From: Liolophura sinensis
Taxonomy: Eukaryota > Mollusca > Polyplacophora > Chitonida > Chitonidae
NCBI RefSeq assembly: GCF_032854445.1
Contig: NC_088295.1
Coordinates: forward strand, 60,305,249 to 60,369,248
Reading direction: 5' to 3'
DNA: 64,000 nt
Part shown: piece by piece, positions 27,451 through 64,000 of the stretch
Numbering within the stretch: the stretch's first letter is position 1
Layout of the letters: every line of letters begins with the position of its first letter
Position numbers and translations under genes: made by a program
Notes under the pieces: model-generated
What the model saw: the letters and a program-made list of their open reading frames with translations, nothing else
Told to the model about the DNA's origin: nothing
Databases searched by the model: none

Positions 27451-27555
27451 TCATCTTCAACCGACTGCTGTCAGGGTGGGACTGAGTCACGAACATTTCG
27501 TGTGTATGACAGATTGAAAGGTCAGCGTCTTAATTACGAGCCCATGACACGCGTG

Positions 27556-27797
27556 AGGTGCTGTTTGAGATGTGAGGCCACTGGAATGGAGGTGGGAGGT
27601 GCCGAGTAAGGTGCTGCGTGAGTTTTCCTGTGAGATGTGAGGTCATGAGAGGGGCGGTGGGAGGTGCCGAGTGAGGTGTTGCGCGAGGCACTGTTTTAAA
27701 TGTGAGGCCACGGGAAGGGCGGTTGGAGGTGCCAAGCAAGGTTCTCTGTCAGGTAATCTTTGATATATGAGGCCACGGGTTGGGCGGTGACAGGTGC
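27556..27797. repeat. GC-rich minisatellite, about 3.5 units of roughly 70 bp
   Basis: Repeats of GATGTGAGGCCACGGGAAGG, GGCGGTGGGAGGTGCCGAG and GAGGTGTTGCGCGAGGC. The composition is sharply more G-rich on the + strand than the flanks. Confidence 0.75.
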
Positions 27798-33985: not shown

Positions 33986-35456
33986 TGTAAAGCAACCATT
34001 TGTCAAGCGCTACATACAGTGTGCCTTCAAAACAAAACATGATAATGTGCTCGTAAGGAACACTAATGTCGTGTTTAATCTCCTATCACACTTTGATCTG
34101 ACATCGCGTAATTCATGAACTCAGGTATGTGGAAGACATGAAGCATCAACATACAAAACTCCTTGCTGTTAAAAAAATGCAAAAACAATTATCCTGTCGG
34201 TGAATAAAGTGCGTTATTATATGACGTGGTCTGCGACTGTAAGAAATTATAAGTATCATAATTCAAGAGTGAGGAACGACAATATTTGGGGTTACCTATT
34301 ACTCGTGTGTAATACAGCTAGCACAGTTCATTACGGTACTAATGTGAACAAATTTTGCTTTTGTGCTGATATCATTTACATTAATAATGTGGCGCTTTTT
34401 TTGGTGAAATATTAGTTTCAAAGTATTGTGATGACATTTTCAGAAATGTCAAAAATGTTCAGATTACTCAGGCTGTCAAATTGCACATGTTCATTTCAAT
34501 CTTTAGCAAATATTTTTTTGCCTTGCATCTGTCTCTAATGAACAGTCACCTGACCGACTGCCTGGCACAACGTGAACGGAAGTCGGCCAGCAGGACTCTC
34601 CTGTCCCAACACCACCTGAAGTAAGGCTGCACCAGCCTCCTGAGCAGGGAAGAAACACTCGAGAATTGACGTCACTTCCGGGTTCTTGTCAGCTCACGTG
34701 ATGTCAAGAGGACCGGCGTTAAAGAGGACTAAGGCGACGGAAGTTCCATTTGCTGAAATATTTAGAGGAAGAAACACTTTTTTTTAAGTTTATTTACTTT
34801 ATATAACTGAATGGGGCTTACCGCCGGTCAAGAATATTTATATATACTTATGTGACGGCGGTCGGTTTTATGGGCGGATGAACTTTTGTCAAGTATATGA
34901 CAGATTTTCACTCAGGGAACAACAGACAGAAATGGTCATACTATAGCTGTCGATCGCTTATTTTCCTCGTCCTGGACGTATTTATTATACATGTGCCGTA
35001 CAGTGTCATAATGGAAATAGAAACTTCTCCATGATGTGACGTACCGTACATCACGGCATCCTTCAGTAAATGTAACTGTTCACCAGGACGATTCATGTCC
35101 GCCCTGTCGTTAGGCTGGCTTTCGATCAGTTCACCTGAGAAAAAAGCGAGTTACAGGTACATGGTTAGTAAGGTCTCGTCCACCGGTGCGATTTGTCCTA
35201 TGGACTCGTCGAATGGAAATATACGACATTTCATACGATTTGTAGAATTCGACAAATGTGAATGCGGGTCATGAAGGAAAATTCCTTCTTATGTTCCTTC
35301 TACTAGGCGTGTTCCACGAGTCGATACGACACGTTGCACCGCGTGAATGCTGCATAAGAAAATGGAATAAAACACATGGTTTCCATCCCCAAGATAGCAA
35401 CATCATAATCATGGTAGCAACGCCGGGCGATTCGATAATCGGGTGGGGAAAGAGGT

Positions 35457-35554
35457 GTTACGAAGCGATGGTAGGCTACGGTGTTGCGAAGCGATGGCCG
35501 GATGCTGATGTCATAAATTCGCACAGTCGCAAAGTATGACCATCGCTTCGTAAC
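35457..35554. repeat. Inverted repeat with 15-bp perfect arms
   Basis: GTTACGAAGCGATGG (35457-35471) and CCATCGCTTCGTAAC (35540-35554) are exact complements. A further near copy GTTGCGAAGCGATGG lies between them at about 35483. Inside the decayed GH3 copy. Confidence 0.65.
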
Positions 35555-36039
35555 AACGCCCCCATACCGTTTGCCTCCTTTGCGCGGCGTGACAATAGCC
35601 CCCTCATGAAGTACCCATGTGCCTCTATCATCACCCCTTTATGTTACTTGTATCGACTACAGTTTCAATATAGCGACATTGATATAATGGCCATATCCAT
35701 TTTTCATATGTATCAGATTCTGGGTGTACACATAGATGCGTCGGTTTGAGTTTAATTTGATTTGTGCCTAAACCCACACGATGCGATATGTCGTACTTCG
35801 TCGAATTAGACAACTGGAATAAAATAGCAATAGCCACGTTCAGGCGATGAAATTTATCTAATGCTACAACCGCATGAAACAGCACATGTTCTGTTTTCAT
35901 TCAACTAGTCAAATTCGATGGGGATACGTCTTACAGCGCATGCGTCGCCCTTTACCTTTCGCTTTACAATTCACTGTAAATTTTTGTACAGAAATCTGGA
36001 ACGACACTTGGGTCAAGGTGATGAGACAGACAGTGATGC

Positions 36040-36530
36040 GGGAAGTAACTGCTGAGAAAAATACTCTCGAGGCTGTTTGCTCTTCGGAGTGACTTCGGTG
36101 AGATTTCTTCCTCTCAAAGCCGTGCCACAAATATCCGTGCGAGATATCAGCAATTTTTTTTTAAATTTGTTTTTTTTAATTTAGCCAGATTATCCTTGCT
36201 TGTATAATGTCAGGTCTTCGCCATCTAGTTCACGAATTAGCATATGCGATTTGCATATACGCCACTTTGCCGCCGCCTCAGGATCCATAACCTGGTCCAT
36301 GTGTTTTTTTTTGCGACATTTCGCTCTTAAGTGTTTCAGTTCGGCTTATAGCTCAGTGTCACATCATTTGGTGAGATCTGCCCCTAGCGAGTCTATAAAA
36401 TATCCAATATGCTAAATATCTGTGGCACGGCTTTCAGAGGAAGAAATCTCACCAAGAACACCTCGCAGATGAAGAGCCAATAGCCTGAGCAAACAGCCTC
36501 CAGAGTATTTTTTCTTAGCTGTTAGTTCTC
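36040..36530. mobile_element. Element with ~100-bp imperfect terminal inverted repeats
   Basis: The left arm (about 36040-36135) contains AAAAATACTCTCGAGGCTG, TTTGCTCTTCGG, GGTGAGATTTCTTCCTCTC and AAAGCCGTGCCACAAATAT. The right arm (about 36411-36530) holds the complements ATATCTGTGGCACGGCTTT, AGAGGAAGAAATCTCACC and CAGCCTCCAGAGTATTTTTT. The ~275-bp centre has no convincing coding. It lies between pseudogene exon relics 7 and 8, so it may have contributed to their disruption. It looks like a non-autonomous DNA transposon or foldback element; the class is not determined. Confidence 0.65.
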
Positions 36531-38106
36531 GTCTGGGGTAAACTTGATGAGGCTTAACCTTAACGTGTGCCGCACAGGCTCCAAAGGTCAAGCTAGTCTA
36601 GTGGTGGCAGTGATGTAAAAGGCAAGATAGAGGGAAAAACATGCGCTGTAAGGAGTATGTTCGACGGGTAGACTCGACATTTACACTTAAACACAGTTAA
36701 GTATTACACTTACACGTTGGGGATCAGTTTCACAGGTGCAAGAAACCCGAAAGCATGTGAAGTACAGATCTACACCGCCTGCAGAGCGAGCTTATTGTGA
36801 ATGCCACAATGGTGGGAGACAAGTGTACCTATGCCCCGTGGCACGCCTTTTGCCATTTCGGCCCGGAGAACTGCCGAGGGCGGGGAATTTTTGAGGGGGC
36901 CCTTTCCAGGGGTAGGGGGTGAATCAAGACTTCATGCACCGCAACCACTAAAAAATAATGTATTGGAGCGTTATGTAATTACAAGTTGACAACGGATACA
37001 GCTACTGTGCGGGAACATGCAGTGTAGCTCTAGTGGTATCCGGTTCGGTATAGGGTCGCGTATACATGAAGACCAATTACAATGTCCAAGACTACACCCT
37101 TAACTTCAGAAAACCGGGAAAGTATCTTGAAGAAATCATTCGCAGTGGTTATTTTTGAAGAAACTTCGGGGGTATAATTCATGTAAAGGTTAATCTCTTT
37201 CCTCAACATGAATTTAATTCAAACTGATAGGACTGACACGTGAACATAAGTCCATCCGATAACCTGCAAATCTCGCCCTAAAGCGTGATTTCGCTTCAAA
37301 TTACTGACGCAAAGATCGGAGTGTGACCGTTTCATTTGCTGGTGAATCGACAGCGTGGTCACCAAATAACTGTGTGGATTTGTTAGACATTGGACCAACT
37401 ACCTGAAAAAATGTCGCAGATAAGAAGCTATCTATCATATTGCTCCTCAGGTAATAAATTAAGATTTACCAAATGAGCCATGAGGGGTAAAACACTGTTT
37501 TTTGATAAAGGCAGAAAAAACAAGACTGATTCTTTAAGAGTCTTACAAGTATATATTCAATATAGGCGATATCTCTTGAAAAAAGGTTTAATGTTTGTGG
37601 GTTATCAAGCCTCCACTAAAAAAAGCAATACGTATTAGTTACTCACTGATAAAGTTCTGATATCGACATTTCTCTGCAAGGGAAGATAATTATTTCTGTT
37701 TTTCAGTAGTACGATTGACTTGATCGCCACTTCTCGTGAGATGGCCACGTGTTCGGGACTGTCAATAACGCTGATGTCAAGTTTGGTGTAAGGATTCATT
37801 TCCGGTGGGTCAAACTCGCCGAGCCTCATTCTAGTGTAGAATAGGGGCTTGACACTTCCCACTACCTTCTCCATGGACAGACTTCCGGAAGAAACGGCTA
37901 TTGCTATGACACAAGGATAAATAAGAGTAAGCATGATCTTTTCTGTTTTGTGGTGTAATTTATTTCCGGTTTAAATATTCTTGATAAAAATAAATGTGAA
38001 ATATTACATATTAATATAAACGTACAATATTACCTTGTGATGCGCGTTATACTTTTACACATAGGATATTTATCTATGAATCTCATTACTGAGGTGAATA
38101 TCATTA

Positions 38107-38313
38107 TCAGTCGCATATTTACTTCCAAAGTTGAAAGTCAGTCACAGATTTACTTCTGACGGTGAAAGTCAGTCACGTATTTACGTCTGAAGGCGAAGGT
38201 CAGTCACAGATTTACTTCCGAAGGTGAAAGTTAGTCACAAATTTACTTTCAAAGGTGAAATTCACTCACAGATTAACTTCCAATGTTGGAAGTTAGTCAT
38301 TGATCTACTTCCC
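38107..38313. repeat. ~37-bp tandem repeat, about six units
   Basis: Units of AGTCAGTCACAGATTTACTT plus CCGAAGGTGAA, moderately diverged. Next to pseudogene exon 5. Confidence 0.75.
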
Positions 38314-38329
38314 TAAATTCTGGGTCAGG

Positions 38330-38580
38330 TCATAACAAAGACTTCAGAATGGCACTTGTTGCTCCTCGCTTGGTGCTTTAAACGGAGAGGTTAGAGCACG
38401 GAAACAGGACAGACTGAACCGGTTTCAGTATGGTGTGACTAGGTAAGGTGTCATATCTGGTGTCTACGGCATGGTACTTCAATGGTGGAAGACACAGAGT
38501 ATATATATACACACCGAGTGACTCCTCGTCTTCATATGACTGAAAAATTGTTCAGTATGACGTAAAACCTCGAGCATATA
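38330..38580 (+). repeat. SINE related to family 2
   Basis: Contains CAGTATGGTGTGACTAGG, GGTGTCATATCTGGTGTC and CATATGACTGAAAAATTG followed by AGTATGACGTAAAACC. The head is degraded. Confidence 0.55.
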
Positions 38581-40805
38581 TACATGCATGTACATATTTT
38601 CACCAAGAAGGACATCGGACAAATGGCTTTATTAACATATTTTGTGAATCACCCATGTCCATATACATGTAATAGTCCACGTTCTGATGTCCCGACAGGT
38701 TTCAGGTTACATCCGGCGTTCACACAGGCTGCCACGGTCTGAACGCTGGTGTAAGTGTACTTGTGCCTTTTATGTACCCCTTCCACGGCACCCTCATCGC
38801 TAACGACGTACCCCGTGAAACCCCACTCCCATCGTAGTACGTCCCACAGCAGCTTCTTATTTGCACGTGTAGGAACGCCGTTTAGACTGCAAAGTTGCAG
38901 AGAATCGAAGTTAGTATACTAGTCAGGTTTTTACTTTAGCTCTCTACCCTCAAAGGTATTTTCTGTGTAATAGTCTAAGCAGTAGCCTATGGCGGATAAC
39001 AGTGGTGGACTTATCGGCGGTGAAGGCCCGAGTGATAAACAGTTTTCTTGGAAAATGGGCATGCTGTATATAAGGATATTTCTTCCACTGCTCGATCTGT
39101 TGATACAGTAAGTAGGTCTACTATATCATTTACAAGGAACCCCAGCGACTGTTTTAAAAGTCAGCAGATGCATGGCCCGTGTATTCTGGAGGGGTTTATT
39201 GGTGATTTTGAGCCCTATTAAATGTTTACAAAATTACAGTCAGATTGTTGTACAACTAGATTCATGATCAAATGTGAAACAAATGAAATGAAGCTAAACA
39301 TGAATGGGGCTGCATGATCGAGGCAACTAACTGTTGCTGGATTTTATGCTTCAATTTTGTAGCGGTGGCTTCTATGGTGAGAGAAGTGCTGACCTAGTTA
39401 TCGCGGATGTCAGAGGCAACACCTCTGCTTGAACACGGCGTTTAAATGCTATAAAAGAAAACTGAAAAAAACATCCCTTGTATGTGAGAAAGACAAATTC
39501 GTGAAATTTAAAAGAGCTTTAATATAGCTCTCATAAATTCAGAGAAAAAAATTACTGGGTATATCATAAGGTTTAATTAATTTAAACGTTGTTCGCTGAG
39601 TTTTAGTCTTCTCATTCTAACAAACCATCGGCATCCCTGATGAATTTAGCAGAGTCTGATATTTGTTATTTATAAACTGTTGACTAAGCGGTAAAATGAA
39701 CGACAAAAATGCGTTTGTATAATTTGAACAGCGTGACTAAGTAGGCCTAGGGTTTATTGGGGAGATGCATGTGCGCTTTTGGCGGAGACTGTATGCTGAT
39801 GTGCTTACTGTCTGACATAATTTGTGATACCGTGTTGAATATTACACGGCTTGTAAATCAACTGGTTTTACGTCTGTAGCGGTCCCTAAATGATACAGAC
39901 CTGTCCCACAATTAACATTGTGCGAAATGGCCCTCCGGCTACACGTAATTAAATTGTTGTAAACGATCTCACAATGATGTCTTATGCAGTAGTTCTGTGT
40001 TATCATATTTCACTTCGTGGAGTGAATGGGTAAAGGCTACGTCACAAGTCGCGCAACCTGACAGTAACGTGTATGATTGGATAAAATTCTCAAGATGACT
40101 ACCTCGATGCACACCAGCCATTTGTGCAGTATTGCCATTTTGTTGCACATGTTATTTGGTGAAATCTCATTAAAATTATAAAGTATGATATCTTTTAGAA
40201 AGCATGAGTAGCCTGCTTTCGATTGAAATATGTTTTAGCCAGGTGCTGTCTTTTCTTTTAAATCTGCAGAAAATAGATGCGACAAAACCAAAGAATGTCC
40301 TGTTGCTGATCCTCAGTCATCTATACCCTCACTTTATTCAAATTTAGTCCTGCAAAATCTCGTAATATCTCGCCGTGCCTGTCCCCCGGTAACGCGTTCA
40401 TGAAACGGAACAGAGGAAAAGTTTCGAATGCAACACCAACATTTACATACGCCTCTCACATGTCATTAACTCTTCGCCAATTAATTTACGGCGGGACGTC
40501 TTCCTGTTTCACTATTTAAAATATGGCACTTGGAGAAAAATTGGTGTTTGGGAAGAATAGTTTTGTGAGCCATGTGTCATAACAGCTGACAACAAAAGGA
40601 TTTCAGTGTTCTGAGGGGAACAGAGAACAACTACATATAGGTCGATGATTTGAACAGGCCCATGTAGTCATCAAGCTGTCAGATCCTTGATTTCTTCTAG
40701 GTTGTGGGATCACCCCTATATACTTTTGACTAACTAAGGCCATGGACGACCGAGAGTTCTTTAGATCACTAATTCTTGACAACCGTTATTCGCGTGTTCT
40801 AATTT

Positions 40806-40900
40806 ACATTTATTTGATTGGTGTTTTACGCCGTACTCAAGAATATTTAAATTATACCACTGGCGGCCATCATATTGGTGGGAGGAAACGAAGTGTGTAC
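40806..40900 (-). repeat. SINE family 1, 3' fragment
   Basis: TTTATTTGATTGGTGTTTTA, CGCCGTACTCAAGAATATTT and GGCGGCCATCATATTGGTGG; the rest is missing. Confidence 0.75.
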
Positions 40901-41562
40901 TTGTAAAAATTACATTAAGCGGTATGTCTCGTAAGACATGATGGTTTCTTCTGGGCACATTTCCGGTTTTCTCAACCCATGAATCTGTTTGATGCCATGT
41001 AAGTGAAATCTTCATTATTGGTGTTTACAATACTAAAGCCATGTACGTGCAGAACAGTCCACTACAGCGTTGGACTGGGCTATTGGATATCCGTTAGGAA
41101 TATTTGCCGTAACAGATCCGTTAGGATTTTCATGATTTAGATCATATAACAATTTTACAGGAATGATAAAATATACCTTGGCGTCAAAAGACGCTCTGCT
41201 TACAGGAATGTTGTCCGGATCACCGTGGACGTCAAAGTGTTTACATCCGGCGCTTGTCCTGATGTAACGTGGGTGATCACCCTGTAAACCTGTCACGAAA
41301 TGCTGAGCGTACAGGCCATTCATGAACGATCCTCGGTAGTCTTTCTCAGAGAAAGCCTATAACACAATTTTTGTACATCATTTCTCTCTGTGTACACTGA
41401 CTGACATGTTGCTTACACTACATGGAAGTGAATGATCACATACTTGACAAGGGTATTTATAAAGTACAAAAATTATTGGTGTGTGGAAGAAGAAAAGCAA
41501 TAAACACATTTTTGACAGGGATTGGGTTGGCTTCAAACAAAGACTTAATACGGTGCCTTATC

Positions 41563-42600
41563 ATGACGGAATACTCACCTGGTTTCTGCCCTACAGAGAT
41601 TGTCTCCTAATACTGATGATGGAACACTCACCTGGCTTCTGCTCCACAGCGGATGTCTCATGATAATGCTGACGGAATACTCACCTGGTTTCTGCCTCAC
41701 AGAGGATGTCTCATGATGTTGATAGGGGAATACCTACCTGGTTTCTGCTCCACAGCGGGTGTCTCATGATAATGCTGACGGAATGCTCACCTGGTTTCTG
41801 CCTCACAGAGGATGTCTCATGATGTTGATGGTGGAATACCTACTTGGTTTCTGCTCCACAGCGGATGTCTCATGATAATGCTGACGGAATGCTCACCTGG
41901 TTTCTGTCCCACAGTGGGTGCCCCATGATATTGATGACAGAATGCCCATATGGTTTCTGTCCCACAGTGGATGTCTCATGATAATGACGGGATAATCACA
42001 GGGTTCCGCCCCACAGAAGTTGTCTTATGATAATGCTGGCCAAATGCTCACCTGGTTTCTGTCCCACAGTGGGTGCCCCATGATATTGATGACAGAATGC
42101 CCATATGGTTTCTGTCCCACAGTGGATGTCTCATGATAATGACGGGATAATCACAGGGTTCCGCCCCACAGAAGTTGTCTTATGATAATGCTGGCCAAAT
42201 GCTCACCTGGTTACTGCCTCACAGAGGATGTCCCTTAATGTTGATGACGGAATACTTACTTGGCTTCTGCTCCAAAGTGGATGACTCGTGATGTTGATCA
42301 CGGAATACTCACCTGGTTTCTGCCTCACAGAGGATGTCTCATAATGTTGATTACGGAATACTCACTTTGGTTTCTGCTCCACAGAGGATGTCTCATGATA
42401 ATGACGGGATAATCACAGGGTTCCGCCCCATAGAAGTTGATTACTGCCTTCCAGAGGATGTCTCATAATGTTGATGACGGAATACTTACTTGGTTTCTGC
42501 TCCAAAGTGGATGACTCGTGATGTTGATCACGGAATACTCACCTGATTACTGCCTCGCAGAGGATGTCTCATAATGTTGATTACGGAATACTCACTTTGG
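41563..42600. repeat. Exon-2-derived minisatellite of the GH3 pseudogene
   Basis: About 19 tandem units of roughly 53 bp. On the - strand each unit reads CATGAGACATCCTCTGTGAG, GCAGAAACCAG and GTGAGTATTCCGTC, which is the 3' end of exon 2 plus its 5' splice site. Donor variants GTGAGT, GTGAGC, GTAGGT and GTAAGT occur. A block of several units (GGTTTCTGTCCCACAGTGG to CCCCACAGAAGTTGTC) is repeated at about 41900-42030 and 42055-42185, showing multi-unit duplication. The array abuts the exon 2 relic. Confidence 0.9.
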
Positions 42601-44629
42601 TTTCTGCCTCGCAGAGGATGTCTCATAATGTTGATGACGGGACTGAAGCAGCTCAGGCCTGTGTGTTTTCCGTAAATCCCAGCCTTGTAGTTGTTGTGCT
42701 TAGCTCTCGCCTCCACACGGGTTGTTTGCCCATTAGTGAATATCAAAGAGGGGCTGTTTTCTTGCAAGACAAAGAAAAAGCATTTCGATTTAAGCTATAT
42801 GATGTCGAGTACACTTAACTGCTGTTGTTGACCTCTAATAAAGTAAAATATGGTTATTTAATTATTTATGTAACTTAGGGAAATGGGAGTGGCATGAGTA
42901 AACCATCGCGTTGGGCAAAATACCTGACACACCTCCTGTCTTGTAAAGCCGCTGCTGAACCAGACCCCTCCCCGTCCTGACTTTCAGCATATGTGTATCA
43001 ATCAGTGTCAAATAACCAGGCGGCAATTGGCACAATAACATAAAGACTACAGGGTAGAGAGTAAAAGCACATCAACGACGACAGTGTGATAGTTGGCAAA
43101 TGGTCACATGTAACTCATGAAACACGACATCTTGTCCGTTTTTATTCTAACTGATCCCCTAAATGCTTAAATCATAGCGAAGTGCACGCGCACTAGCACT
43201 ATGGTTTAAGCAGAATTAGTTAAAAATATATGTCCAGTGATGACAACTGCAATATACTAGACGCCACTGAAACTCACGTACCTGAATGAGGCCGCCAGCC
43301 CAAGGGACTGCAGAAATGACGTAGCCAGTCCTGCTCTTACATCACCTCTCGAATACTCGGTGTCCCAATCGTACGGTTTTATGCCAATGGCGGGAGCCGG
43401 CTGAGTTTTGTCTATCTGGGGTACTATTTCATCCAGGGCGAGCCTGCTGACCAAGTCATTCGCACGTACTTCCCACGTTAGGGACACGTTCCTGAAAGGA
43501 TAGTCACAACGGCAGCCCAGCGCACACCAACACAACAACCTAGACAAAACGAACCGCCATACGTGCCAGAGTTAACGTCTTATTGTAACCACAGCGTTTT
43601 TGGAAACTGCTTCTATGTCAAATCGGTGAAAAGTTCAGTACCTTTCACGTAGGCCTAATACACACATATCTTAAAACTGTACAGATGTGATGCAAAAATG
43701 CACGCATATTTTTTCACTAATATTATATTTGTCGTCAAGGTTCATGCACTTGTCCCATATAATAGATAATCAGTGCACTGTGTTATAGTCTCGTAGAACA
43801 CTGTGTTTCGCGTTACCTTGGGGTCCACTGGGCAGTCTGGTATAAAAATGCGTACAACATCGATGATGTAAGGAAAATTCTGATTCGATTACAGGTGTCT
43901 GCACGTGAGATTATTTAAATTCGGGAGCAATAAATTGGGAAGTCGTGAGGCAAAGTTGCACGAAGTCATTTGTATGCTGCTGGTGTTGTTGTATTCGTTA
44001 TTTATGACTGTCTAATGGACGCCATGTTTGTGAAAGACAGTACGAAGTTTGGGGAGATTAGCAATGTCATTATCTTCACGAAGGCGTACTTTAATCTCTA
44101 GACTATTAAAGATTAGATATCAGAACGTGAATGCAAATGGTTACTACGAGACAGTGTTGTGGTAACTATATCCTCTCTTATTTCATCGGTATTAGTATAC
44201 ATGTAGTAAAACACGCTTATATAAAGTTCCCATCCTATCTTTCGAGTGACTCCCAACTGCCGTGCTCAAGAATATTCATCGGAGTATCCGGCGTAAACCA
44301 CTGTCCTTTGGCAAGTTACTGGCGAACTTATCCACGTTTTATATATTTTATATATTTTTATTTATTTGTTTCAATGATGTTTTCGGTGATTCGGAATCCT
44401 TAATCCTAATATATTGGTCTTTAATTTAATCCGTGGTTGTGAAGCTTTTCATTCGACTTGTTATACTTTGAAGTCTAAATTCGACTTTACCCAGTGTGCT
44501 GCGTTAAAAGTATTTGGACTTTGAGCTTTGAAAACTACAACTCTAAATGTTCTGCCAGCCCACTGTCAGGAATGGCTTCTGTCAATCAGACGCAAAATGA
44601 ATACAGCCAAACTTGTGATTAACTTAGAA

Positions 44630-46096: not shown

Positions 46097-49000
46097 TTAA
46101 AAACTGCCTAAATATTTCTGCCCTTTGATGACGAAGCTGGTTTGTAGAACATTAGAGCCGACAGATTTCCTCTGGTCAGGCTGTTGGCCTCCGGCGTACA
46201 CCATTATCTCACCTGTGGAAAAAATAATAATCAATATACTATAGTGGGGAAAAAATTCGCTAATAAATATATTTCGTAGTCTGTATGTACCAGACTTTAT
46301 TCATTTCTTTTAGCTTATGACAACTGCTCTTTTGACACTACACTATCTTGATTAACATTCCCCCCCGATAAGACTTGTGAGTATTTTACATGTGGAAGCT
46401 GTTTAATACCCAACACGTCATACAATATTGTTCGTCTCACATACTAAAACAACTTGAACACACATTTAGTGACAAGCATCCATTGGAACTGATATGGTTT
46501 ATTGTTTCTTATTTAGTATTAAAGTAAAACAGTTTTATCAGTCGACAAACCACTGAAGAATATTGCTATGACCAAAATATTTGTCTTCACCACTTGCAAA
46601 TGTTATGTTTGTCTCAATATTTTTTGCCTGAATTATGTATAAAAAAAACGTGTTATGTGTTTTCAAGGTAAACAGTATATTGTTACGCACTGGTTCAGGG
46701 TCACAATCTAGATGATAACACAAAACTTTGTCGAAATGTCTGTCGTTAGCGCTCACATGAGTGCATGAATATTTTAGCACTAGTAAAACAGCCTGGGTCT
46801 GTGCATCGAAAAAGGCATTCGTACACCAAGCGTCAACCAGTAGGGACGTTCCTTTTCAATAATCACAAGGACTCTGACTGTGAGGCTTAAGCTTCATGCC
46901 GTGAAACTATCAGCTAAAGAATGTCTAACGTTACCGCTCATATTAGTCCTGCAATAACTTTTGGCAATCTTTTCCAAATGGAGACAGTTAATTCTAAATT
47001 TTTCTGGCGGTCACCAAAATTGGGACGCCAAATAAGAGAATAAATGTGATACTTTCCTACAAGATATAAACTGTACTTATAGCCTTATCATTTGTTCAAT
47101 TTGAGTTTGTTAGAACCTAATCCGAATGTCAAATATTACTAAAACAATGCAATTTTTTTTTCTTTTGTTGGGATATTTGTCTGAGAAAAAAAAATACAGT
47201 CATATCCTTAATTACCTGGTTCAATGAAAAACTGTCCGGAAGTATCGTCCCACTGCGCCATCTGGTGAGCTTGGATCGTAAACTCGAGGGCTAGTTTTAC
47301 GTCAACCTCGTTTGGGGATAACTTTTCTATTCTATTAAAGGCCACTAACTGAAGTTTAGGCATGGGTGTACTGGCGTTAGACCAACTGATGTAAACCTGG
47401 ACGACCTGAATAAACAATAATGAAGGAAGAGGAAGTTTAAATATTAATAAGGAAGTAAGTATGATAGATGTGTTGTCACAAGTTGCGATGTGTTCACATT
47501 TCACACATGTAACCCACGTTTCAAGCAAAATAACACCTTCACTGAAAGGAAGAACAAAAAAAATTGTTTCCCCATATATCCGCCCTTTAAAAATAAACAC
47601 GTTAATATAGTAAAACGTTGAAAAAGTAATTCCCTCTGTCCCTTGCTTAACCATGCATGTCATGCCTTATAATTATGAGCATGGGTTAATAAAGTTGAAA
47701 AAAAAAAAACAAGAATGTTAAGAATGTCTGACATTCATTCTTTTGGCTGCAACCAGTATGGTAAAATTGGGGAACTGCACTGTAATGAGTGATCTATATT
47801 AAATATTATGAAAATCACAACCGGTCAAAACCAGCTATATACTGAACAATAAACAAAAAGAATGAAAAACTACATGAAAACTGACCTCATCACTGACGAC
47901 TTTTCCCGAGTTGTGGAGAGTGACGGCCACGGTTTGCTCCTGACCGGCCAGTATTGTGGAACTACCGAGACTGATATCTGTGTAAGTGAAGTTGGTATAG
48001 GACAGACCATAGCCGAACGGGTACAGGGGGTCTCCGGTAAAGTAACGGTAGGTACGCTCTGACATTGTGTAATTCGTAATCCCTGGGGTCTGGAAGAAAT
48101 CATGAAATCAAGAAACGTTCGTTCATTATAGTCAGCTGACCGATTAATTTCTCCAATAATTACAAGGACTATTATTTTTTTCTATAATTGTATTGTGATA
48201 ATAGCATTGCTGAATAAAATACCCCTGCAAACGTTTTCTCTTACTTCAACTTCCGTTTCAACATTATTTCGGTCTTTTCTGGATGGTGTCTCTGTAGAAT
48301 GTCACTCCCAGTGAGGCTTCCCTGGAAGACACCAGATATGACACCAAGATTACAGTAATACTGACTCTACGACGATCAGTGTACTACGTATACCTCTCAT
48401 GAAGATCGCATGCGATGATGTGCCAAAACTGGAATCGATCTGAACTATGACTCGCGAATCAACGAATCACCTGATTGACTGCCCGGTACCACGTGAACGG
48501 AAGTCGTCCAGCAGGACTCGCCACACCTTGGACCACCTGAAGCAAGGCTGCACCAGCCTCCTGGGCAGGGAAGAAACACTCGAGAATTGACGTAACATCC
48601 GGATTCTCATCCGCCCACGTAATGTCAAGAGGACCGGCGTTAAAGAGGACAAGGATCACGGGAGTTCCATTGGCTGAAATACATATTTACGTAAAGAAAA
48701 ATATGGTTTGACTGCGGAATACTGTAACCAGGCGAGATTTAGGTGTATGGGAAAAGATAAAGAAATGAAAATGTATGTACACATACTCCTGAAATCAAAA
48801 CGTCAAAATGGTCAAACAAATTAAAATTTTTCCGCTGCCCTTGTGAGCCAAGAGGTTTCATATGACTTATTGGTGACGCACGATCCACCGTTTTGTTCCT
48901 TCACTGCTAAACCTGACACAAGCCGTCATATTTGTGAACTATTCTTGAGTACGTCAAATAACCACGGGACAACCACGACCATCTTAGTGCGCCAAATAAA

Positions 49001-52000
49001 CTAAATATAGAAACTCCCAGCTCCGTGTTCATCTCTTGCCATTAACCTACCGTACTTCACGGCGTCCTGCAGCAACTGTAGCTGTTGACCAGGGAGATTC
49101 ATGTCAGCTCGGTCGTTAGCTTCGCTTTCGATGTCACTTCCTATGGAAAGGAAATTTAGTTATTGGTCCATGTTATTTAGCAGCTAGAGTCCATGTAAAT
49201 TCATTACACCCTCCCCCCCCCCCCCCCCCAACAAATGCATTCCAAAGTAAACGGTGGGCGACGCTTGTGTGGTGGTTTGTGCAGTTGAAGCGTTCGTTGA
49301 AGACCAATGTTCTCCCACCAATATGATGTTTATAGTTGTATGTGACTTGTGGGAAAGTTCGTCTGTAACATGCCAAAGGCCGGTGGTTTATGTCGGGCAC
49401 TTCGGTCTGCTCTGCCCATGAAACTAACCACTGTCGGATAAGTGGAGTATGGCACTTAAATAAATAAATACAAATTACTGCAAGATCATTTACCAGTCCC
49501 CAAGCAGACAATGACGAGTTGGGAACCAGAGATGACGGCCATGTCGGCGGGTTTGTAATCCGTACAAAACGGGGATGAACAGCCATTTGCCTGTCGGGTG
49601 TCGGGGCTGAGGGACTTCAGAGCGGCATAAGGGGTGATTATGTACTTTGAGGGGGAGGCTGCGGCATAGTCACCAAACAACTGCCTTCCGTCGTTGGACA
49701 TCGGACCTACAACCTGAAATACGAAAACCTTTGTGATCGACCAATGAGTTTATTGACAAACCTTATTGAAGCCAAGTGAGTGGATTGCATAGAAAGTTTA
49801 AAATTTTCAATGTTGAAGGTGTTAACATATTCATTAATCGTTTCGGATTTTTTTGGCGTACACATCCCTTTATGTAGCGTATGAACAAGTAACATTCAAG
49901 TTAGGTGTAAAAATGCAATATAGAAAACAATGAGCGTGGTCTCTCAAGATTTTCTGCCTGTACATGGCGGTTCCAAGCTGTGTAAAAACATATCGTTCTC
50001 TATACGGCTGGTGAACTACATCACAACTCTACAGAGCCAGTAACGTATTACAGAAAAGTACAAATAAGTAGTAACATAGCCGGACCGACTTGTTTTAGGC
50101 GGGTTACATTCCCACTGACTGTGTTCTTTGCTTAATGTCCCTTTCCGTTGTCTTAAGCGTGTTATTTGAAATTGCTCTTACAGCGATAGTTTTGATGTCG
50201 CCATTTCCTTTCAATGGCAGGAAGTTGTTGATATTTTTTAGAAGCACGATTGTCTGTACCGCAGCATCCCGCGAGATGGCCACGTGCAAGGGACTCTCGA
50301 TGACACTGAGATCAATTTTGGTGAAAGGGTTCATTTCCGGTGGGTCAAATTCGCCGAGCCTCATTCTGGTGTAAAACAGGGGTTTGACACTTTCTACTAC
50401 CTTCTCTGTCGTCAACATACCTTCTGACACGGCCTCAGCTTGAAGATAAAAGAGAAAAACTTTCATGACGGTTGCACAACAATTTTGGTTGACGAATTCC
50501 ACTTGTAACCTGGATAACAGCAACAATAAATTGCAAGTATGTTTTAACCATAAATTATTTCTAGGGTTCAGGATTTGTTTAATAATTCATTGACCAAAAT
50601 ATGAAAGAAAGGCTGTACGAGATAGATCTTTTCCCGAGAGAAAGCCACCATACTGTTGTTGTCCAGCAAACCACAGCTTTGTGTAGCACATACAGTTACA
50701 TTTCTTGGTTCTATGGGGGAGACAGATCACAACATTCTGTTTATTTGTTCAATGTCTCTCTGACCTCCGAAATGCTAACGATTTTCGACTTAATTTTTTT
50801 AACGGAATATATAATGCTACAGTCAGCAACCCACTATAAAAGATTCATAGGTCTAGAATTACTGAAAATACTGTGCTGCTGTCGCATGCAGCCTTTCTAA
50901 TACTCATCCTCCGCCTTTTTATTGCACATCATGCATTACTTTCGCTGCATCTTGGGGAAACTTCAAAGCAAAATGATTAGAGAAGTACAGAGGACGCGAT
51001 TCTCTTTCTTCATACTTTTTTTTACATTTTCTCATTCTTTCAAATCCCCACAATGGTTTATGCATTTTGGATGTAAAGTTATTAATGACTGGCCAAAGCC
51101 GAATTGTACCCATTTGCATATAGCTGTCGTTGTCCTGATGTGTTTCCAGTTCCAAGTTACATCCGGCGTTTACACAGACCGCCACAGTCTGGACGCTGGT
51201 GTTCGTGTAATGGTGGGCTCTAGCCACATTCTCCACCGCACTACCGTCGCTGACGACATAACCACTGAAACCCCACTCCCCACGCAACACGTCCGTCAGC
51301 AGCTTACTGTTGGCACAGGCGGGAATGCCGTTCAAGCTTCAAAAAATAGTTTAAGTCTGCTTTTAATATTTGAAGGGAAAATGGTATTTATTAAGCCAAT
51401 ACGCTTCACACAATTTGCTGTTTTAAGTCAGCCTTGGGTTTTCTCATCCTTTTTTGTATGGGACAGTCGGAGAACATAGCCATCAGCTGGTGAGCCATTT
51501 CTATACGGTCTGCTATGCAAAACATGTCACGCCTATATTCCACCCTCTAATTGGAACGCCAGCCCAAAATTCACAACCAGTGCACAGCTATGTGTTACCT
51601 TTCCTGGGCGGTGTACATGAGGGTAAAACTTGAAAAAAAGCGAGTCATGGTCATTTTTGTGACAACCGACAACCTAAAAAACTACCATGTGGGAGGGACG
51701 CGTACCTGTTGTAGCTGCACATTAAACTGAATGTTCCAGCTTCGACACACATCCTGAAGGCTGGAAGAAACGTCAGCCGCCAGTCCCTGTCCGTCACCTG
51801 TACAACAACAACAAAGACATCAATGATTTTTGTGGCAAAGATTTAAACGCGTCAGTTTTTGAAAACCGTGTGTTATCCTGTGATGACTGGTATTCAATGG
51901 ACATTTTCGTTAGCGAGTCTGTAAAAGCTTTTGAACAGGCAGCGACTCATATTCATTTAAAGGAGAAGAAAACTTAAAAACATGACACTATAGGCTTAAA

Positions 52001-55000
52001 AGGGCATATTTTTTTCTATCTGGTGGTGCCTGCCGCATAATTTTGCGATTTACCCTCGCCATACACGTAAAGCCTGAAAACGGCAAAGATGGCATAAATC
52101 GCTGAGTCCATCATGTCCTCCATCTTTAACAACCTGTAATTTATGCTGGGGGTGTGTTGCCTCTCAGCCAGTGAGAGTCGTTAAAACTGCCTGCTTGTTC
52201 GTGTAAACTCGGAACCCGATCGTCAAGCGGAAAAGGAACTGTACTGTTCGCTACCTTCTGGGAAGAAGAGTTCTACCGGAAATGTACGAACTGCACTTCG
52301 GCGGTTTAAGACGGCAATTCTCCTTCTAACACAGAAGACTTCAGGACTGGTTCTTAGGCAAAATGGAATCGCCCACAGCGGATTTTGGTGCTGACTTTAT
52401 TCATAATTTATCAACTTGAGGTACATATTAGAATTTTTTTATGGCATGCACCTGCGAGGAAATGAATACTCTTTTCAATGGTATTTGACTGATATTTAAA
52501 TTTTCTTCTCTTTTAATGTCATTTCTTATATGAGCTCCGATGAGTTAGTAATTTTCACAGATAAAGAACTTTCTAAGGCCTATTTTTCAAGGATTGATGC
52601 GTTGTTGTTGGAAATGAAACATTTAGGAATAATTGTTTCGCTGATGGAGTGTTCTGAGGTCATATTAACGCAGACAGTCAAGACTTTCAAGAGACTATTA
52701 CTAGAGCAACGATCTCCTCGGTGGCCTCAAAGTCGGGAGACCCGGATGAAATCCGGGCCGAATAATACCGATGACTTAAAAAAAATTCACTTAGCACTGT
52801 GGGGTTAAAGGAGGAAACATGACTGGTTGTACCAGTGTCAGTATAATGTGACTGGAGGCAGGGGTGTCGTCCTTTGTGTCTTCGGTAAGATCCTTCAGTG
52901 GCAGCAACGTTTTGGCGGATCTGCCACAGGGAGGCACCCAATAACTCCTTCTTGTCATATGACCCCAAGCATACACGTACAGAAACATACAGAAACAAGG
53001 ACTGTTTTGCAAAGCAAGCACTTCAGGGTGTCCGTTTTAAAATACAAAATGAAACAGTCGCCTATATTGTGGTCAGATAAAGCTTTGTTTCACGAGAGAA
53101 TGTGGCAGAACTTTACCTAAAAGATCACTCCATTCTTCTTTGAACTAGTTAACCTGTTACCTTCGCATTAAAAGAGCTTCTTTGAACGGGAATATTGTCC
53201 GGACCACCGTGGGCGTCAAAATGTTTACATCCGGCGCTTGCCCGGACGTAACGTGGATGATCTCCCTGTAAGCCGGCCACGAAATGCTGAGCGTACAGAC
53301 CATTCATGAACGGATCTTCACCATAGGTTTCCTGAAAAAAGGATCAAGGAATTGGGTTATATTAGTTATTATTTTTTGTTATGTTATGTTGTATCATCGA
53401 GGGATATGTCTCTATTCTACCTTTGGTTTCTCCTGATATAGATGGCTAATCAAGGCTAATCTTTCATGATGCTGGTAAAGGAATACTCACTTGGTGTCTG
53501 CCCTACAATAGGATATCTCATGAGGCTAGTAACTTGATGTCTGCCCACAGAGGATGAGGCAGGTAACCGATTACCCCACTAAAGTGGAAGTCGCACGAGA
53601 CTGGTAAAGGAATACTCACTTGGTGTCTGCCAAGAAAGGATGTCTCATGATGCTGGTAACGGAATACTCACTTGGTGTCTGCCCCACAGAGGATATCTCA
53701 TGAGGCTGGTAACGGAATACTCACTTGATGTCTGCCCCACAGAGGATGTCTCATGAGGCTGGTAACGGGGAATACTCACTTGGTGTCTGCCCCACTGAGG
53801 ATGTCTCATGATGCTGGAACGGAATGGTCAGTTGGTGTCTGCCAACAAAGGTTGTCTCATGAGGCTGATAACGGAATATGCAATTGGTGTCTGGCCCACT
53901 GATGATGTCTTATGATGCTGGTAACGGAATACTCACTTGGTGACTGCGCCACAGAGGATATGTCATGAGGCTGGTAACGGGAAATACTCACTTGATATCT
54001 GCCCCACAGAGGATATCTCATGAGACTGGTAACGGAATACTCTCTTGGTGTCCGTCTCATGAGGCTGGTAACGGGGAATACTTAGTTGGTGTCTGCCCCT
54101 CAGAGGATATCTCATGAGGCTGGTAACGGGGAATACTCACTTGGTGTCTGCCCCAAAGAGGATGTCTCGAGGCTGGTAACGGAATACTCACTTGGTGTCT
54201 GCCCCACAAAGGATATTTCATAAGACTGGTAACGGAATACTCGCTTGGTGTCTGCCCCACAGAGGATATCTCATGAGGATGGTAACGAGGAATACTCACC
54301 TGGTTTCTGCCCCACAAAAAAGCTCCTGATGGTAATGGGAGAATACTCACCTGCTTCCTGGCCCACAGAGGGTGTCTCCTGATAGGGATGAGAGAATACC
54401 CACCCGGTTTCTGCCCCACAGAGGGTGTCTCCTGATAGGGATGAGAAAATACCCACCTGGTTTCTGCCCCACAGAGGATGTCTCATGATGTTGATGACGG
54501 GACTGAAGCAGCTCAGGCCTGTGTGTTTTCCGTAAATCCCAGCCTTGGTATAGTTGTTGTGTTTAGCCCTTACTTCCACTGACGAAACCTCTGCTATCGT
54601 ATATACAAGTGATGGGCTGTGTGTTGAGGAGAGAAGATTGTCGTAAATGTAGTTAAGCCCAAACGGTTGTGGTCATTATTTGGGCAGAGCATAGTAAATT
54701 CAAGTAAATAAGAACAAATCATTTTATAGTATCAGGAGGCATTTGATCAAAAATACGTTAAAGTTAAGCCAATCTTAACTCTGAATATCAATCTCATCCT
54801 TATAGAAAATAAACGACACTTTATAGTCTGGACTATAGTTAATACCGGGTTTAAATCCTAAGAATTTTGTGCAACTGAGCCCTGATATCTCAACGTAACA
54901 GGCTTCAACGGACTGGAAAGTTATGGTCCGGCTTCCACCGCGGGATTGTGGAAGTGCATTTTCAGACGAAGCTCGTGTTTCCATGTTGAATTTTTACCTC

Positions 55001-55719
55001 GCAGGGTGGATGTACATGTACTGTAATTGCCTATAGTAAGAATTCTAACTGTTGTGCGTAATGGCTTCATTCTATGTCATGGTCGGATCACTGCAAAATT
55101 AATTATTTGAATTAGTTTCCAATTCAGCATGCTCGTGTTATGTAGGCGCAATGGCCTGCCTTTGCTGGTGTAAGCTTTCATATCCACATATTAGTCAGTA
55201 TTGGCCTCAAGCTTTAGACATATGATTGTCTGGATACTAAAATCGCATTTTTTCTATACCGTAACATTTAGTACCAGGCCGGGAAAACTATCATGCTGCC
55301 TCACTTGAATACTATGCCGGATATACGAGCCATGGCGCTACTCACCCAGGCACAGTATGCATGTACTGACACCATCGGTGCCTAGTGTGTAAGTATGGAA
55401 AGGGATTTCACTGAACGCACAGTACGTACTTGAACGATGCCGCCAGTCCAAGAGACTGGGGAAATGACGTGGCTACTCCCGCGTGCACGTCTCCCCTCAA
55501 ACACTCGGTATCCCAGTCGTACGGTTTTATATCAAAGCGGTCAATGGCGGGAGCTGGCTGAGTTTTGGCCATCTGGGGTACGATCTCATCCAGGGTGAGC
55601 CTGCTGACCAAGTCATTAACACGTACTTCCCACGGCAAGGAGACATTCCTGAACGGATAGTCACAACGGCAGTCCAGCACGCTGAACAACAACAACGCCC
55701 ACACAAATTGGGCCACCAT
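46097..55719 (-). CDS. GH3 beta-xylosidase-like glycosidase, complete, 12 exons, 739 aa
   Basis: Exons (5' to 3'): 55430-55719, 54457-54616, 53161-53331, 51706-51797, 51110-51336, 50182-50438, 49494-49713, 49051-49140, 48471-48673, 47886-48089, 47216-47405, 46097-46212. All are GT-AG, phases match, and the total is 2220 nt. The ATG at 55719 opens a signal peptide (MVAQFVWALLLFSVLDCRC). The GH3 barrel follows with PLWGRNQ then ETYGEDP, KHFD at 186-189 and GYVVSD with the expected nucleophile Asp268. The second domain has VVGPM, VCLGTG and IESEANDR (Glu477/479 near the expected acid/base), then GRLPFTWY. A fibronectin-III-like end starts around YPFGYGLSYTNF and closes at EIMVYAGGQQP. This is the two-domain-plus-FnIII layout of beta-xylosidases, which release xylose or related sugars from glycan ends; substrate is inferred only. 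Secretion or lysosomal delivery is likely. No inactivating change is visible. Confidence 0.93.
48290..48440 (-). repeat. SINE fragment related to family 2
   Basis: GAAGACACCAGATATGACAC and CAGTAATACTGACTCTACG match the middle of the element at 33.7 kb. It lies in the GH3 intron between exons 9 and 10. Confidence 0.5.
49213..49229. repeat. Poly-C run of 17
   Basis: An uninterrupted run of C (G on the coding strand) in a GH3 intron. The length may be unreliable because homopolymers are error-prone. Confidence 0.8.
49300..49470 (+). repeat. SINE, family 3
   Basis: Holds TGTGACTTGTGGGAAAGTTC, CATGCCAAAGGCCGGTGG, CTCTGCCCATGAAACTAACC and a TAAATAAATA tail. It ends about 25 bp before GH3 exon 7 begins (49494). 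Confidence 0.65.
52805..52985 (+). repeat. SINE fragment related to family 2
   Basis: CCAGTGTCAGTATAATGTGA, GGGGTGTCGTCCTTTG and CTTGTCATATGACCCCAAGC match the 33.7 kb element. Intronic, between GH3 exons 3 and 4. Confidence 0.55.
53478..54456. repeat. Exon-2-derived minisatellite with decoy 5' splice sites in the intact GH3 gene
   Basis: About 18 units of roughly 53 bp directly after the exon 2 donor. On the coding (-) strand a unit reads CATGAGACATCCTCTGTGGG, GCAGACACCAA, GTGAGTATTCC and GTTACCAGCCT. The first ~30 nt copy the end of exon 2 (which encodes MRHPLWGRNQ) and the next ~9 nt copy the splice donor. I count eleven exact GTGAGT copies between about 53485 and 54350. The genuine donor at 54456 reads GTGGGT, a weaker match to consensus than the decoys. 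Confidence 0.92.
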
Positions 55720-62092: not shown

Positions 62093-64000
62093 GTTACCTT
62101 AGTCTGGTATTTCCCCGATTGTGAGTATCTTAGTCTGGTATTTCCCAGATCGTGAGTATCTTAGTCTGGTATTTCCTAGATTGTGAGTATCTTAGTCTGG
62201 TATTTCCTAGATTGTGAGTATCTTAGTCTGGTATTTCCCAGATTGTGAGTATCTTAGTCTGGTGTTTCCTAGATTGTGAGTATCTTAGTCTGGTATTTCC
62301 TAGACTGTGTTTTTCCCAGACTGTGAGTATCGTAATCTAGTATTTCCCCGATTGTAAGTATCTTAGTCTGGTATTTCTCAGATTGTGAATATCTTAGTCT
62401 GGTATTTCTCAGATTGTGAATATCTTAGTCTGGTATTTCTCAGATTGTGAGTTTCTTAGTCTGGTATTTCCCTGAGTGTGAGTATCTTAGTCTGGTATTT
62501 CCCAGATTGTGAATATCGTAGTCTGGTATTTCCTAGATTGTGAGTATCTTAGTCTGGTATTTCCTAGATTGTGAGTATCTTAGTCTGGTATTTCCTAGAT
62601 TGTGAGTATCTTAGTCTGGTATTTCCTAGACTGTGTTTTTCCCAGACTGTGAGTATCGTAATCTGGTATTTCCTAGATTGTGAGTATCTTAGTCTGGTGT
62701 TTCTCAGATTGTGAATATCTTAGTCTGGTATTTCCTAGATTGTGAGTATCTTAGTCTGGTATTTCTCAGATTGTGAATATCTTAGTCTGGTATTTCCCAG
62801 ATTGTGAGTATCTTAGTCTGGTATTTCCTAGATTGTGAGTATCTTAGTCTGGTATTTCCTAGACTGTGTTTTTCCCAGACTGTGAGTATCGTAATCTGGT
62901 ATTTCCCAGATTGTGAGTATCTTAGTCTGGTATTTCTCAGATTGTGAATATCTTAGTCTGGTATTTCTCAGATTGTGAGTATCTTAGTCTGGTATTTCTC
63001 AGATTGTGAATATCTTAGTCTGGTATTTCCCAGATTGTGAATATCTTAGCCTGGTATTTCTCAGATTGTGAGTATCTTAGTCTGGTATTTCTCAGATTGT
63101 GAATATCTTAGTCTGGTATTTCCCAGATTGTGAATATCTTAGTCTGGTATTTCTCAGATTGTGAGTATCATAGTCTGGTATTTCCCTGAGTGTGAGTATC
63201 TTAGTCTGGTATTTCCCAGATTGTGGGTATCTTAGTCTGGTATTTCCTAGATTGTGAGTATCTTAGTCTGGTGTTTCTCAGATTGTGAATATCTTAGTCT
63301 GGTATTTCCCTGATTGTGAGTATCTTAATCTGGTATTTCCCAGATTGTGAGTATCTTAGTCTGGTATTTCCTAGATTGTGAGTATCTTAGTCTGGTGTTT
63401 CTCAGATTGTGAATATCTTAGCCTGGTATTTCTCAGATTGTGAGTATCTTAGTCTGGTATTTCTCAGATTGTGAATATCTTAGTCTGGTATTTCCCAGAT
63501 TGTGAGTATCTTAGTCTGGTATTTCCTAGATTGTGAGTATCTTAGTCTGGTATTTCCTAGACTGTGTTTTTCCCAGACTGTGAGTATCGTAATCTGGTAT
63601 TTCCCAGATTGTGAGTATCTTAGTCTGGTATTTCTCAGATTGTGAATATCTTAGTCTGGTATTTCTCAGATTGTGAGTATCTTAGTCTGGTATTTCTCAG
63701 ATTGTGAATATCTTAGTCTGGTATTTCCCAGATTGTGAATATCTTAGCCTGGTATTTCTCAGATTGTGAGTATCTTAGTCTGGTATTTCTCAGATTGTGA
63801 ATATCTTAGTCTGGTATTTCCCAGATTGTGAATATCTTAGTCTGGTATTTCTCAGATTGTGAGTATCATAGTCTGGTATTTCCCTGAGTGTGAGTATCTT
63901 AGTCTGGTATTTCCCAGATTGTGGGTATCTTAGTCTGGTATTTCCTAGATTGTGAGTATCTTAGTCTGGTGTTTCTCAGATTGTGAATATCTTAGTCTGG
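62093..64000. repeat. 31-bp satellite-like tandem array, open at the window end
   Basis: Roughly 60 units of AGTATCTTAGTCTGG plus TATTTCCCAGATTGTG, with variants (TTCTCAG, TTCCTAG, GTGAATATC). A variant carrying an extra ACTGTGTTTTTCCCAG segment recurs near 62300, 62630, 62865 and 63560. A block from about 62.8 to 63.3 kb reappears 698 bp later with no difference that I can see, so a higher-order repeat has formed. No spacer sequences are present, so it is not a CRISPR. Confidence 0.95.

What the first reader, a model, noticed from the sequence alone, without database searches (positions are those of the whole stretch)
53478..54616. Minisatellite made from an exon end and its splice donor creates a ladder of decoy 5' splice sites
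Seen: the last ~30 nt of GH3 exon 2 plus about 9 nt of donor are repeated as ~53-bp units for about 1 kb, starting right at the real donor. Eleven units keep an exact GTGAGT, while the genuine donor is GTGGGT. Inference: U1 snRNP faces a field of equal or better donors downstream of the true one. Using any of them would extend exon 2, and because 53 is not a multiple of three, successive donors shift the frame. The array could cause alternative 3' extension of exon 2, slow or regulate intron 2 removal, or be tolerated through exon definition. Each unit also has a CAG before the exon-like part, so a ~34-nt micro-exon per unit is conceivable.
Basis: partly seen in the sequence, partly recalled or inferred. 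Interest (0 to 1): 0.8.

Follow-up and report, generated by a model that had tools for sequence, protein, structure and literature searches.

The report
Repeated splice donors after one exon
In this animal genome the end of a coding exon together with its splice donor has been copied about twenty times into the following intron, and arrays of similar build occur behind exons of some other genes, so the splicing machinery must pick one donor out of a ladder of similar ones.

Summary
The 53-bp unit is 44 nt of exon 2 plus the first 9 nt of the intron; the true exon end is unit 0, with 19 units and a partial one after it, and eleven exact GTGAGT. Two decoys beat the true donor; ten score lower. 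All 13 decoy positions tested give a premature stop. Paralogue B, 12 kb away, carries the same array at the same place. Seven other GH3 loci have this intron without an array, so an old intron grew. Exon 2's end was probably converted between A and B. Genome-wide, three spaced CAGGTGAGT words occur 673 times, against 28 for the reversed word; CAGGTAAGT shows less excess, 264 against 158. Of 18 testable arrays, 9 begin at what reads as a coding exon end, 6 of them with a family match, two of these below cut-off. Behind a diacylglycerol kinase exon, 102 decoys equal the real donor. Human CBS and ABCA7 have boundary VNTRs of this kind. Donor use was not testable: no RNA.

The parts
54457..54616 (-). 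Exon 2 of GH3 gene A (160 nt)
   Evidence: Homology to bacterial GH3; Pfam PF00933 for the exon 2 + 3 peptide, E 2.7e-10; acceptor ACACAG|C
54448..54500 (-). Unit 0: last 44 nt of exon 2 plus first 9 nt of intron 2, the true copy
   Evidence: wrap-around alignment
53459..54500 (-). Array A: unit 0, 19 further units of about 53 bp and a 23-nt partial unit
54451..54456 (-). True donor GTGGGT
   Evidence: exon 2/3 reading frame stays open through exon 3
54345..54350 (-). Decoy donor CAG|GTGAGT, stronger than the true donor
54294..54299 (-). Decoy donor CAG|GTGAGT, stronger than the true donor
53485..54191 (-). Span of the nine further GTGAGT decoys (CAA|GTGAGT at 54191, 54140, 53991, 53936, 53779, 53724, 53671, 53619, 53490)
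53161..53331 (-). Exon 3 of GH3 gene A
47211..55700 (-). GH3 gene A, extent of the exons found by homology (no full gene model was built)
   Evidence: Pfam Glyco_hydro_3 and Glyco_hydro_3_C on single exons
41563..42640 (-). Array B in paralogue B: same unit, same place, 19 units after the exon copy plus 7 nt
34537..43543 (-). GH3 paralogue B, with an in-frame stop near 34700 and an altered start of exon 3; probable pseudogene
54488..54547 (-). 60-nt tract identical to paralogue B (about 42628-42687), probable gene conversion

Best explanation
Array A is an exon-junction minisatellite. In an ancestor of the pair A/B, a 53-bp piece spanning the end of exon 2 and the donor was tandemly duplicated inside an already existing intron (origin: strongly supported). 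It grew by slippage or unequal exchange to about 20 units, so that the coding exon end is simply unit 0 of the array, and the exon 2/array region has been exchanged between A and B by conversion (supported). It is one case of a recurrent class in this genome: minisatellites whose first unit is a real exon end (supported by 9 of 18 testable arrays, 6 of them with a protein-family match). In splicing (inferred, no RNA): the exon-proximal donor is chosen mainly by position, through pairing with the upstream acceptor across a short exon and by being transcribed first; the decoys are tolerated, and leakage to them yields non-productive transcripts because all tested decoys of GH3 A give premature stops. 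The array is thus at most a mild sink for GH3 A mRNA.
For: Unit = 44 exon + 9 intron nt. Same intron without array in 7 of 7 other GH3 loci fetched, and A+B a supported clade, 99/97. An exact 155-bp duplication within array B (155 of 155) shows recent turnover. In the A/B comparison the arrays are the only extensive match outside blocks taken as exons; three short matches (100, 51 and 32 nt) were not assigned. Synonymous distance is 0.67 pooled over four other exon blocks (single blocks 0.34-1.07) but 0.16 in the last 90 nt of exon 2, with no change in the 46 nt before the array unit; a 60-nt identical run is reached in 16 of 100,000 shuffles of 1324 aligned columns. All 13 decoys give a stop. 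Class. Positional choice: in L072 the real donor and 102 decoys share the 9-mer.
Against: No transcript data, so donor choice is inference. Two decoys are stronger than the true donor in A and could be used. Local accessibility does not favour the true donor: 22nd percentile, with ten of the 12 GT decoys more accessible. In eight exon-linked arrays elsewhere the donor window is in the best-kept quarter of windows in five, which could mean that decoys matter there, although those arrays were chosen for intact donors. The class estimate rests on extrapolated listings and one control word, and CAGGTAAGT, which gave 14 of the 19 arrays held, is enriched only 1.7-fold over its reversed word.
Confidence: 0.7

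Rival explanations
1. Regulated poison ladder: the decoys, above all the two strong ones at 54350 and 54299, are used in some tissues, and array length sets the share of transcripts lost to nonsense-mediated decay.
For: Two decoys outscore the true donor; all decoys tested give premature stops, those at 54403, 54350 and 54299 within 25 nt after the junction with exon 3. In human ABCA7 one-unit retention and exon skipping occur beside such a VNTR; more CBS repeats are reported to go with lower CBS activity. In five of eight other exon-linked arrays the donor window is in the best-kept quarter (sample chosen for intact donors).
Against: In GH3 donor columns are not better kept than the rest of the unit: rank 13 of 48 and 38 of 48; in three of the eight other arrays they rank 18 of 48, 20 of 31 and 44 of 49. 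Nine of A's decoys lack the G before the donor.
Confidence: 0.15
2. U1 platform: repeated donor-like sites bind U1 snRNP without being spliced and support splicing of the first donor or suppress premature polyadenylation in the intron.
For: Dense consensus donors over about 1 kb; 103 in one array elsewhere. The U1 effect itself is recalled knowledge.
Against: No conservation of donor columns in GH3; seven paralogues do without.
Confidence: 0.08
3. Intron birth: the intron was created by tandem duplication of an AGGT-bearing exon piece.
For: The unit carries exon sequence and a donor, as that model needs (PMC4974935 abstract).
Against: The same intron position is present in 7 of 7 other paralogues fetched, without array, and the acceptor of exon 3 is not in a unit.
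Confidence: 0.02
4. Each unit acts as a small exon, giving transcripts with varying numbers of about 34-nt exons.
For: CAG lies before the exon-like part in many units, and some array AGs have as many pyrimidines upstream (13 of 16) as the real acceptor of exon 2 (real acceptors counted by me on the printed letters).
Against: Within a unit donor and CAG are about 19 nt apart; a stop lies in every read-through tested, although read-through is not the same as small-exon inclusion, which was not modelled.
Confidence: 0.05

Closest known systems
Human CBS 31-bp VNTR, c.1444_1467+7(16_21) (PMC2630376 passages; PMC5188458 passage)
   Same: By its notation the unit is 24 nt of exon end plus 7 nt of intron, at the exon 13/intron 13 boundary, with 16-21 copies; same build as 44 + 9 with about 20 copies. 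More repeats are reported to go with lower CBS activity.
   Different: PMC5188458 calls the CBS sequence non-coding, whereas GH3 exon 2 is coding; the GH3 array is shared by two paralogues; no polymorphism or activity data here.
Human ABCA7 intron 18 25-bp VNTR (PMC5954066 passages)
   Same: Array starts at the exon's own donor; use of a donor one unit downstream is reported, out of frame.
   Different: The unit starts with the GT, so it is intronic; length reaches about 427 copies. It resembles arrays L036, L070 and L071 more than GH3.
[quoted passage not shown]
   Same: Tandem duplication across an exon/intron boundary copies splice signals.
   Different: Here no new intron was made; an old one was enlarged.
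Internal tandem repeats altering human paralogue structure (PMC2812944 passages)
   Same: Minisatellite expansion changes exon/intron structure of duplicated genes.
   Different: Those changes include new introns by cryptic sites; not an exon-donor ladder as far as the passages show.

Membership tests
VNTR spanning an exon/5' splice-site boundary (CBS and ABCA7 type) | Tandem unit includes the authentic donor | tested here: met
   Unit 0 = exon end + donor
VNTR spanning an exon/5' splice-site boundary (CBS and ABCA7 type) | Unit includes exon sequence (CBS form) | tested here: met
   44 of 53 nt
VNTR spanning an exon/5' splice-site boundary (CBS and ABCA7 type) | Copy number varies among individuals | not testable with these tools
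   One assembly only; an exact 155-bp duplication in array B suggests recent change
VNTR spanning an exon/5' splice-site boundary (CBS and ABCA7 type) | Downstream repeat donors are used or alter splicing | not testable with these tools
   No RNA data
Intron gain by tandem duplication | Intron absent in relatives that lack the duplication | tested here: not met
   7 of 7 other GH3 loci fetched have the intron without array
Glycoside hydrolase family 3 (host gene) | GH3 N- and C-terminal domains | tested here: met
   PF00933 and PF01915 on single exons of A; 4 of 10 peptides given (6 of A, 4 of B) matched, 3 of A and 1 of B

The most novel reading that the evidence does not exclude
In this genome 5' splice junctions are preferred birthplaces of minisatellites, giving perhaps several tens to a hundred genes a ladder of donors in which the real one is sequence-identical to, or weaker than, many copies downstream, so that donor choice there is set by position and not by donor sequence.
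Probability: 0.3. Interest if true: 0.85.

Novelty: new member of a known kind. Interest (0 to 1): 0.6.

Why it matters
Arrays such as that behind the diacylglycerol kinase exon (L072: 37 of 44 nt of the unit are exon copy, 102 decoys with the real donor's 9-mer) are natural experiments in which local donor sequence is held nearly constant and only position varies. Counting junctions along such a ladder would measure directly how the spliceosome ranks donors by position, a question usually approached with designed reporters (general knowledge, no call). They also show a route by which coding sequence at an exon end is tied to a fast-evolving intron repeat: in GH3 the exon end is a unit of the array and has apparently been converted between paralogues.

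Tried and rejected
Intron birth by AGGT duplication: rejected, because seven of seven other paralogues fetched share the intron without the array. Selection on decoys: in GH3 the donor window is not better conserved than other windows; in eight other exon-linked arrays it ranks 18/48, 9/38, 2/39, 44/49, 5/38, 3/26, 20/31 and 5/44, that is, in the best quarter in five of eight, in a sample chosen for intact donors; left open, not shown. Structural hiding of decoys: local pairing does not favour the true donor. Other window minisatellites as exon-derived: consensus units of the 45-, 39-, 65-, two 31- and 19-bp arrays have no convincing match elsewhere in the window (best E 0.037). Identifying the organism by a repeat motif in papers: 0 papers. 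Naming the L063, L066 and L070 exons: no match in the searches made (L063 Pfam; L066 Pfam, PDB and NCBIfam; L070 Pfam, PDB and NCBIfam); they rest on open frames. The L065 exon has no Pfam or PDB match and only a weak NCBIfam match. A first version of the identical-run test joined columns across a gap (run of 71, 1 of 20,000 shuffles) and was replaced by the stricter one. A rotated-word control (GAGTCAGGT) and a second scrambled word did not complete, nor was a family search for all GH3 genes (not repeated), so GH3 loci too diverged for a DNA match may have been missed.

Full report
What is there. The window holds two GH3 genes on the minus strand, A (about 55.7-47.2 kb) and B (about 43.5-34.5 kb), found by comparison with six bacterial GH3 open frames; of ten exon peptides given to Pfam (six of A, four of B), three of A and one of B match Glyco_hydro_3 or Glyco_hydro_3_C. 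Exon 2 of A ends at 54457 in ...WGRNQ and exon 3 begins at 53331 with ETYGEDP...; in solved GH3 xylosidases this stretch is continuous. Intron 2 of A is 1125 nt, of which about 1 kb is the array.

Anatomy of the array. A wrap-around alignment with the 53-mer formed by the last 44 nt of exon 2 and GTGAGTATT covers 54500..53459 in A and 42640..41563 in B, with a few insertions inside units; each has unit 0 (the exon copy), 19 further units and a partial one. B's array consensus equals A's exon end + GTGAGTATT at 52 of 53 positions; A's consensus at 47 of 53. The unit is therefore wholly exon end plus donor. Array B ends with CCGTCAT, the first 7 nt of a unit, followed by unrelated sequence; this may be the short repeat that seeded the first duplication (inference).

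Donors. Eleven exact GTGAGT in A. In B five sites are CAG|GTGAGT. All 13 decoy positions tested in A (12 GT and one GC) lead to a stop: within 25 nt after the junction in exon 3 for the first three, inside the extension for the other ten. The donor hexamer is not the best kept part of the unit: rank 13 of 48 windows in A, 38 of 48 in B. Local accessibility does not favour the true donor: ten of the 12 GT decoys are more accessible.

History. Whole-genome search found further exon 2 copies; seven further GH3 loci were fetched (L017-L023). All seven have the intron at the same codon boundary, with lengths 139, 197, 591, 1191, 330, 1090 and 420 nt, no trace of their own exon end inside (best 18-21 of 44, against 37 and 41 in A and B) and no GTRAGT beyond the donor; tandem repeat searches of these loci gave no such array. 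A and B form a clade with 99/97 support. The array thus arose in the A/B lineage inside an old intron. Whether it predates the A/B duplication or was carried from one to the other by conversion cannot be told; both show the same junction of intron +9 to exon -44. Outside blocks taken as exons the arrays are the only extensive A/B match; three short matches (100, 51 and 32 nt) were not assigned. Over four other exon blocks (255 codons) the synonymous distance is 0.67 (single blocks 0.34 to 1.07), the non-synonymous 0.13; in the last 90 nt of exon 2 it is 0.16, and the 46 nt before the array unit show no change. The 60-nt identical run is reached in 16 of 100,000 shuffles of 1324 aligned columns from seven blocks. 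Conversion centred on the array region is the simplest reading. B has an in-frame stop and a changed start of exon 3 and is probably a pseudogene; of the four base changes by which B's unit 0 differs from the reference 53-mer, three are shared with its own first intronic unit. An exact 155-bp duplication in array B suggests that the array still changes.

Beyond this gene. The own genome (609 Mb) was searched for three CAGGTGAGT words 24-54 bp apart: 673 matches, against 28 for the reversed word; for CAGGTAAGT 264 against 158, a much weaker excess. Single words: 10,097 CAGGTGAGT against 2,731 reversed. The 28 control matches form 10 distinct arrays by my count of the listing; the 100 listed of the 673 CAGGTGAGT matches form 14 distinct arrays, so very roughly 90 in all if the rest cluster alike. 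Per word that is about 0.9% against 0.4%: suggestive of an excess, not proof, since it rests on one control word and an extrapolation from a partial listing. In a sample not chosen by motif (window plus seven paralogue loci, 128 kb; period 20-120, at least 3.5 copies), 3 of 7 minisatellites carry GTRAGT in the unit, two of them being A and B.

Nineteen arrays were held with flanks: five of the 14 arrays of the CAGGTGAGT listing and 14 of the 15 arrays of the CAGGTAAGT listing; the other flanks could not be fetched. L068 and L069 have similar units and are probably not independent. One flank (L044) was cut off, leaving 18. Nine begin at what reads as a coding exon end: L027 (SNF2-related, PF00176, 9e-6), L036 (alpha-L-fucosidase, PF01120, 5e-4, below its curated cut-off), L064 (GH31, 6e-13), L071 (MH2, 6e-11), L072 (diacylglycerol kinase accessory domain, 3.5e-10), L065 (deoxyribose-phosphate aldolase, TIGR00126, E 0.0023, below cut-off; no Pfam or PDB match), and L063, L066, L070 by open frame only (no family match). 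The exon share of the unit is 21 of 48 nt in L027, 32 of 39 in L064 (28 by eye), 9 of 49 in L065, 35 of 38 in L066, 37 of 44 in L072 and about 31 of 44 in L063 (by eye), but only 2-5 nt in L036, L070 and L071. The other nine (L028, L032, L035, L048, L049, L058, L067, L068, L069) show no recognised exon at the start; of these only L028, L067 and a piece of L048 were given to Pfam, without match. Because the word itself is enriched in real donors, a share of about half is also what random seeding would give; preferred seeding is not shown.

In these nine arrays the real donor is not better than the copies: the number of decoys with its 9-mer is 102 in L072, 25 in L036, 20 in L065, 18 in L027, 11 in L071 and 4 in L066; in L063 (GTAAAT), L064 (GTATGT) and L070 (GTAAGC) the real donor is further from consensus than the AGGTRAGT decoys (ranking by general knowledge). 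In seven of the nine the first stop comes within 30 nt after the real donor; in L036 it comes at +176, with one in-frame decoy at +75. In L064 the 39-nt units stay in frame and stop-free to +278 nt, so its decoys could lengthen the protein by 13 residues each. In eight of these arrays (L063 not analysed) the donor window ranks in the best-kept quarter of windows in five; the sample was chosen for intact donors, so this neither shows nor excludes selection. Unless transcripts of such genes are largely wasted, the spliceosome must favour the first donor by position (inference).

Comparison. Human CBS has a 31-bp VNTR written c.1444_1467+7(16_21), which by the notation is 24 exon + 7 intron nt in 16-21 copies (PMC2630376, passages), and a review states that more repeats go with lower CBS activity (PMC5188458, passage; the primary paper is not held). 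ABCA7 has a 25-bp VNTR starting at the exon 18 donor, and use of a donor one unit downstream is reported, giving an out-of-frame transcript (PMC5954066, passages). The GH3 array is a new member of this kind. I saw no description of it as a recurrent class in one genome in seven full-text searches, of which I saw listings and passages or the abstract of six papers; most subscription papers are not in that library, and one relevant paper, on human introns from tandem arrays (seen only in a reference list), is not held.

Verdict. Observation confirmed and extended; origin well supported; function open. The most likely effect is tolerated decoys with positional donor choice and some non-productive leakage. 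On rechecking, the odds of the small-exon reading were raised from 0.03 to 0.05, because some array AGs are as pyrimidine-rich upstream as the real acceptor of exon 2.

Noticed in passing
window 62098-64000 (+), runs off the end: 31-bp array TTTCCCAGATTGTGAGTATCTTAGTCTGGTA, whose consensus unit has a donor-like GTGAGTAT, about 150 bp downstream of a possible donor AAG|GTAAGC near 61949; the unit has no convincing match elsewhere in the window.
   Followed up: partly
G000:C3:23270000-23277000 (L072): 4.7-kb array of 107 units of 44 bp behind a diacylglycerol kinase exon; 103 units keep AGGTRAGT.
   Followed up: partly
L064 (G000:C1:26349500-26355500): GH31 exon followed by 39-nt units that stay in frame and stop-free to +278 nt, so decoy use could add 13-residue repeats.
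   Followed up: no
window 34537-43543 (-): GH3 paralogue B: in-frame stop near 34700 and changed exon 3 start, probable pseudogene.
   Followed up: partly
G000:C1 45.4, 60.3, 62.0 and 67.2 Mb: At least nine GH3 loci on one contig, partly in clusters.
   Followed up: partly
window 9715-10156, 12829-13034, 27551-27797, 38107-38312: Further minisatellites of 45, 39, 65 and 31 bp without GTRAGT in the consensus unit.
   Followed up: no
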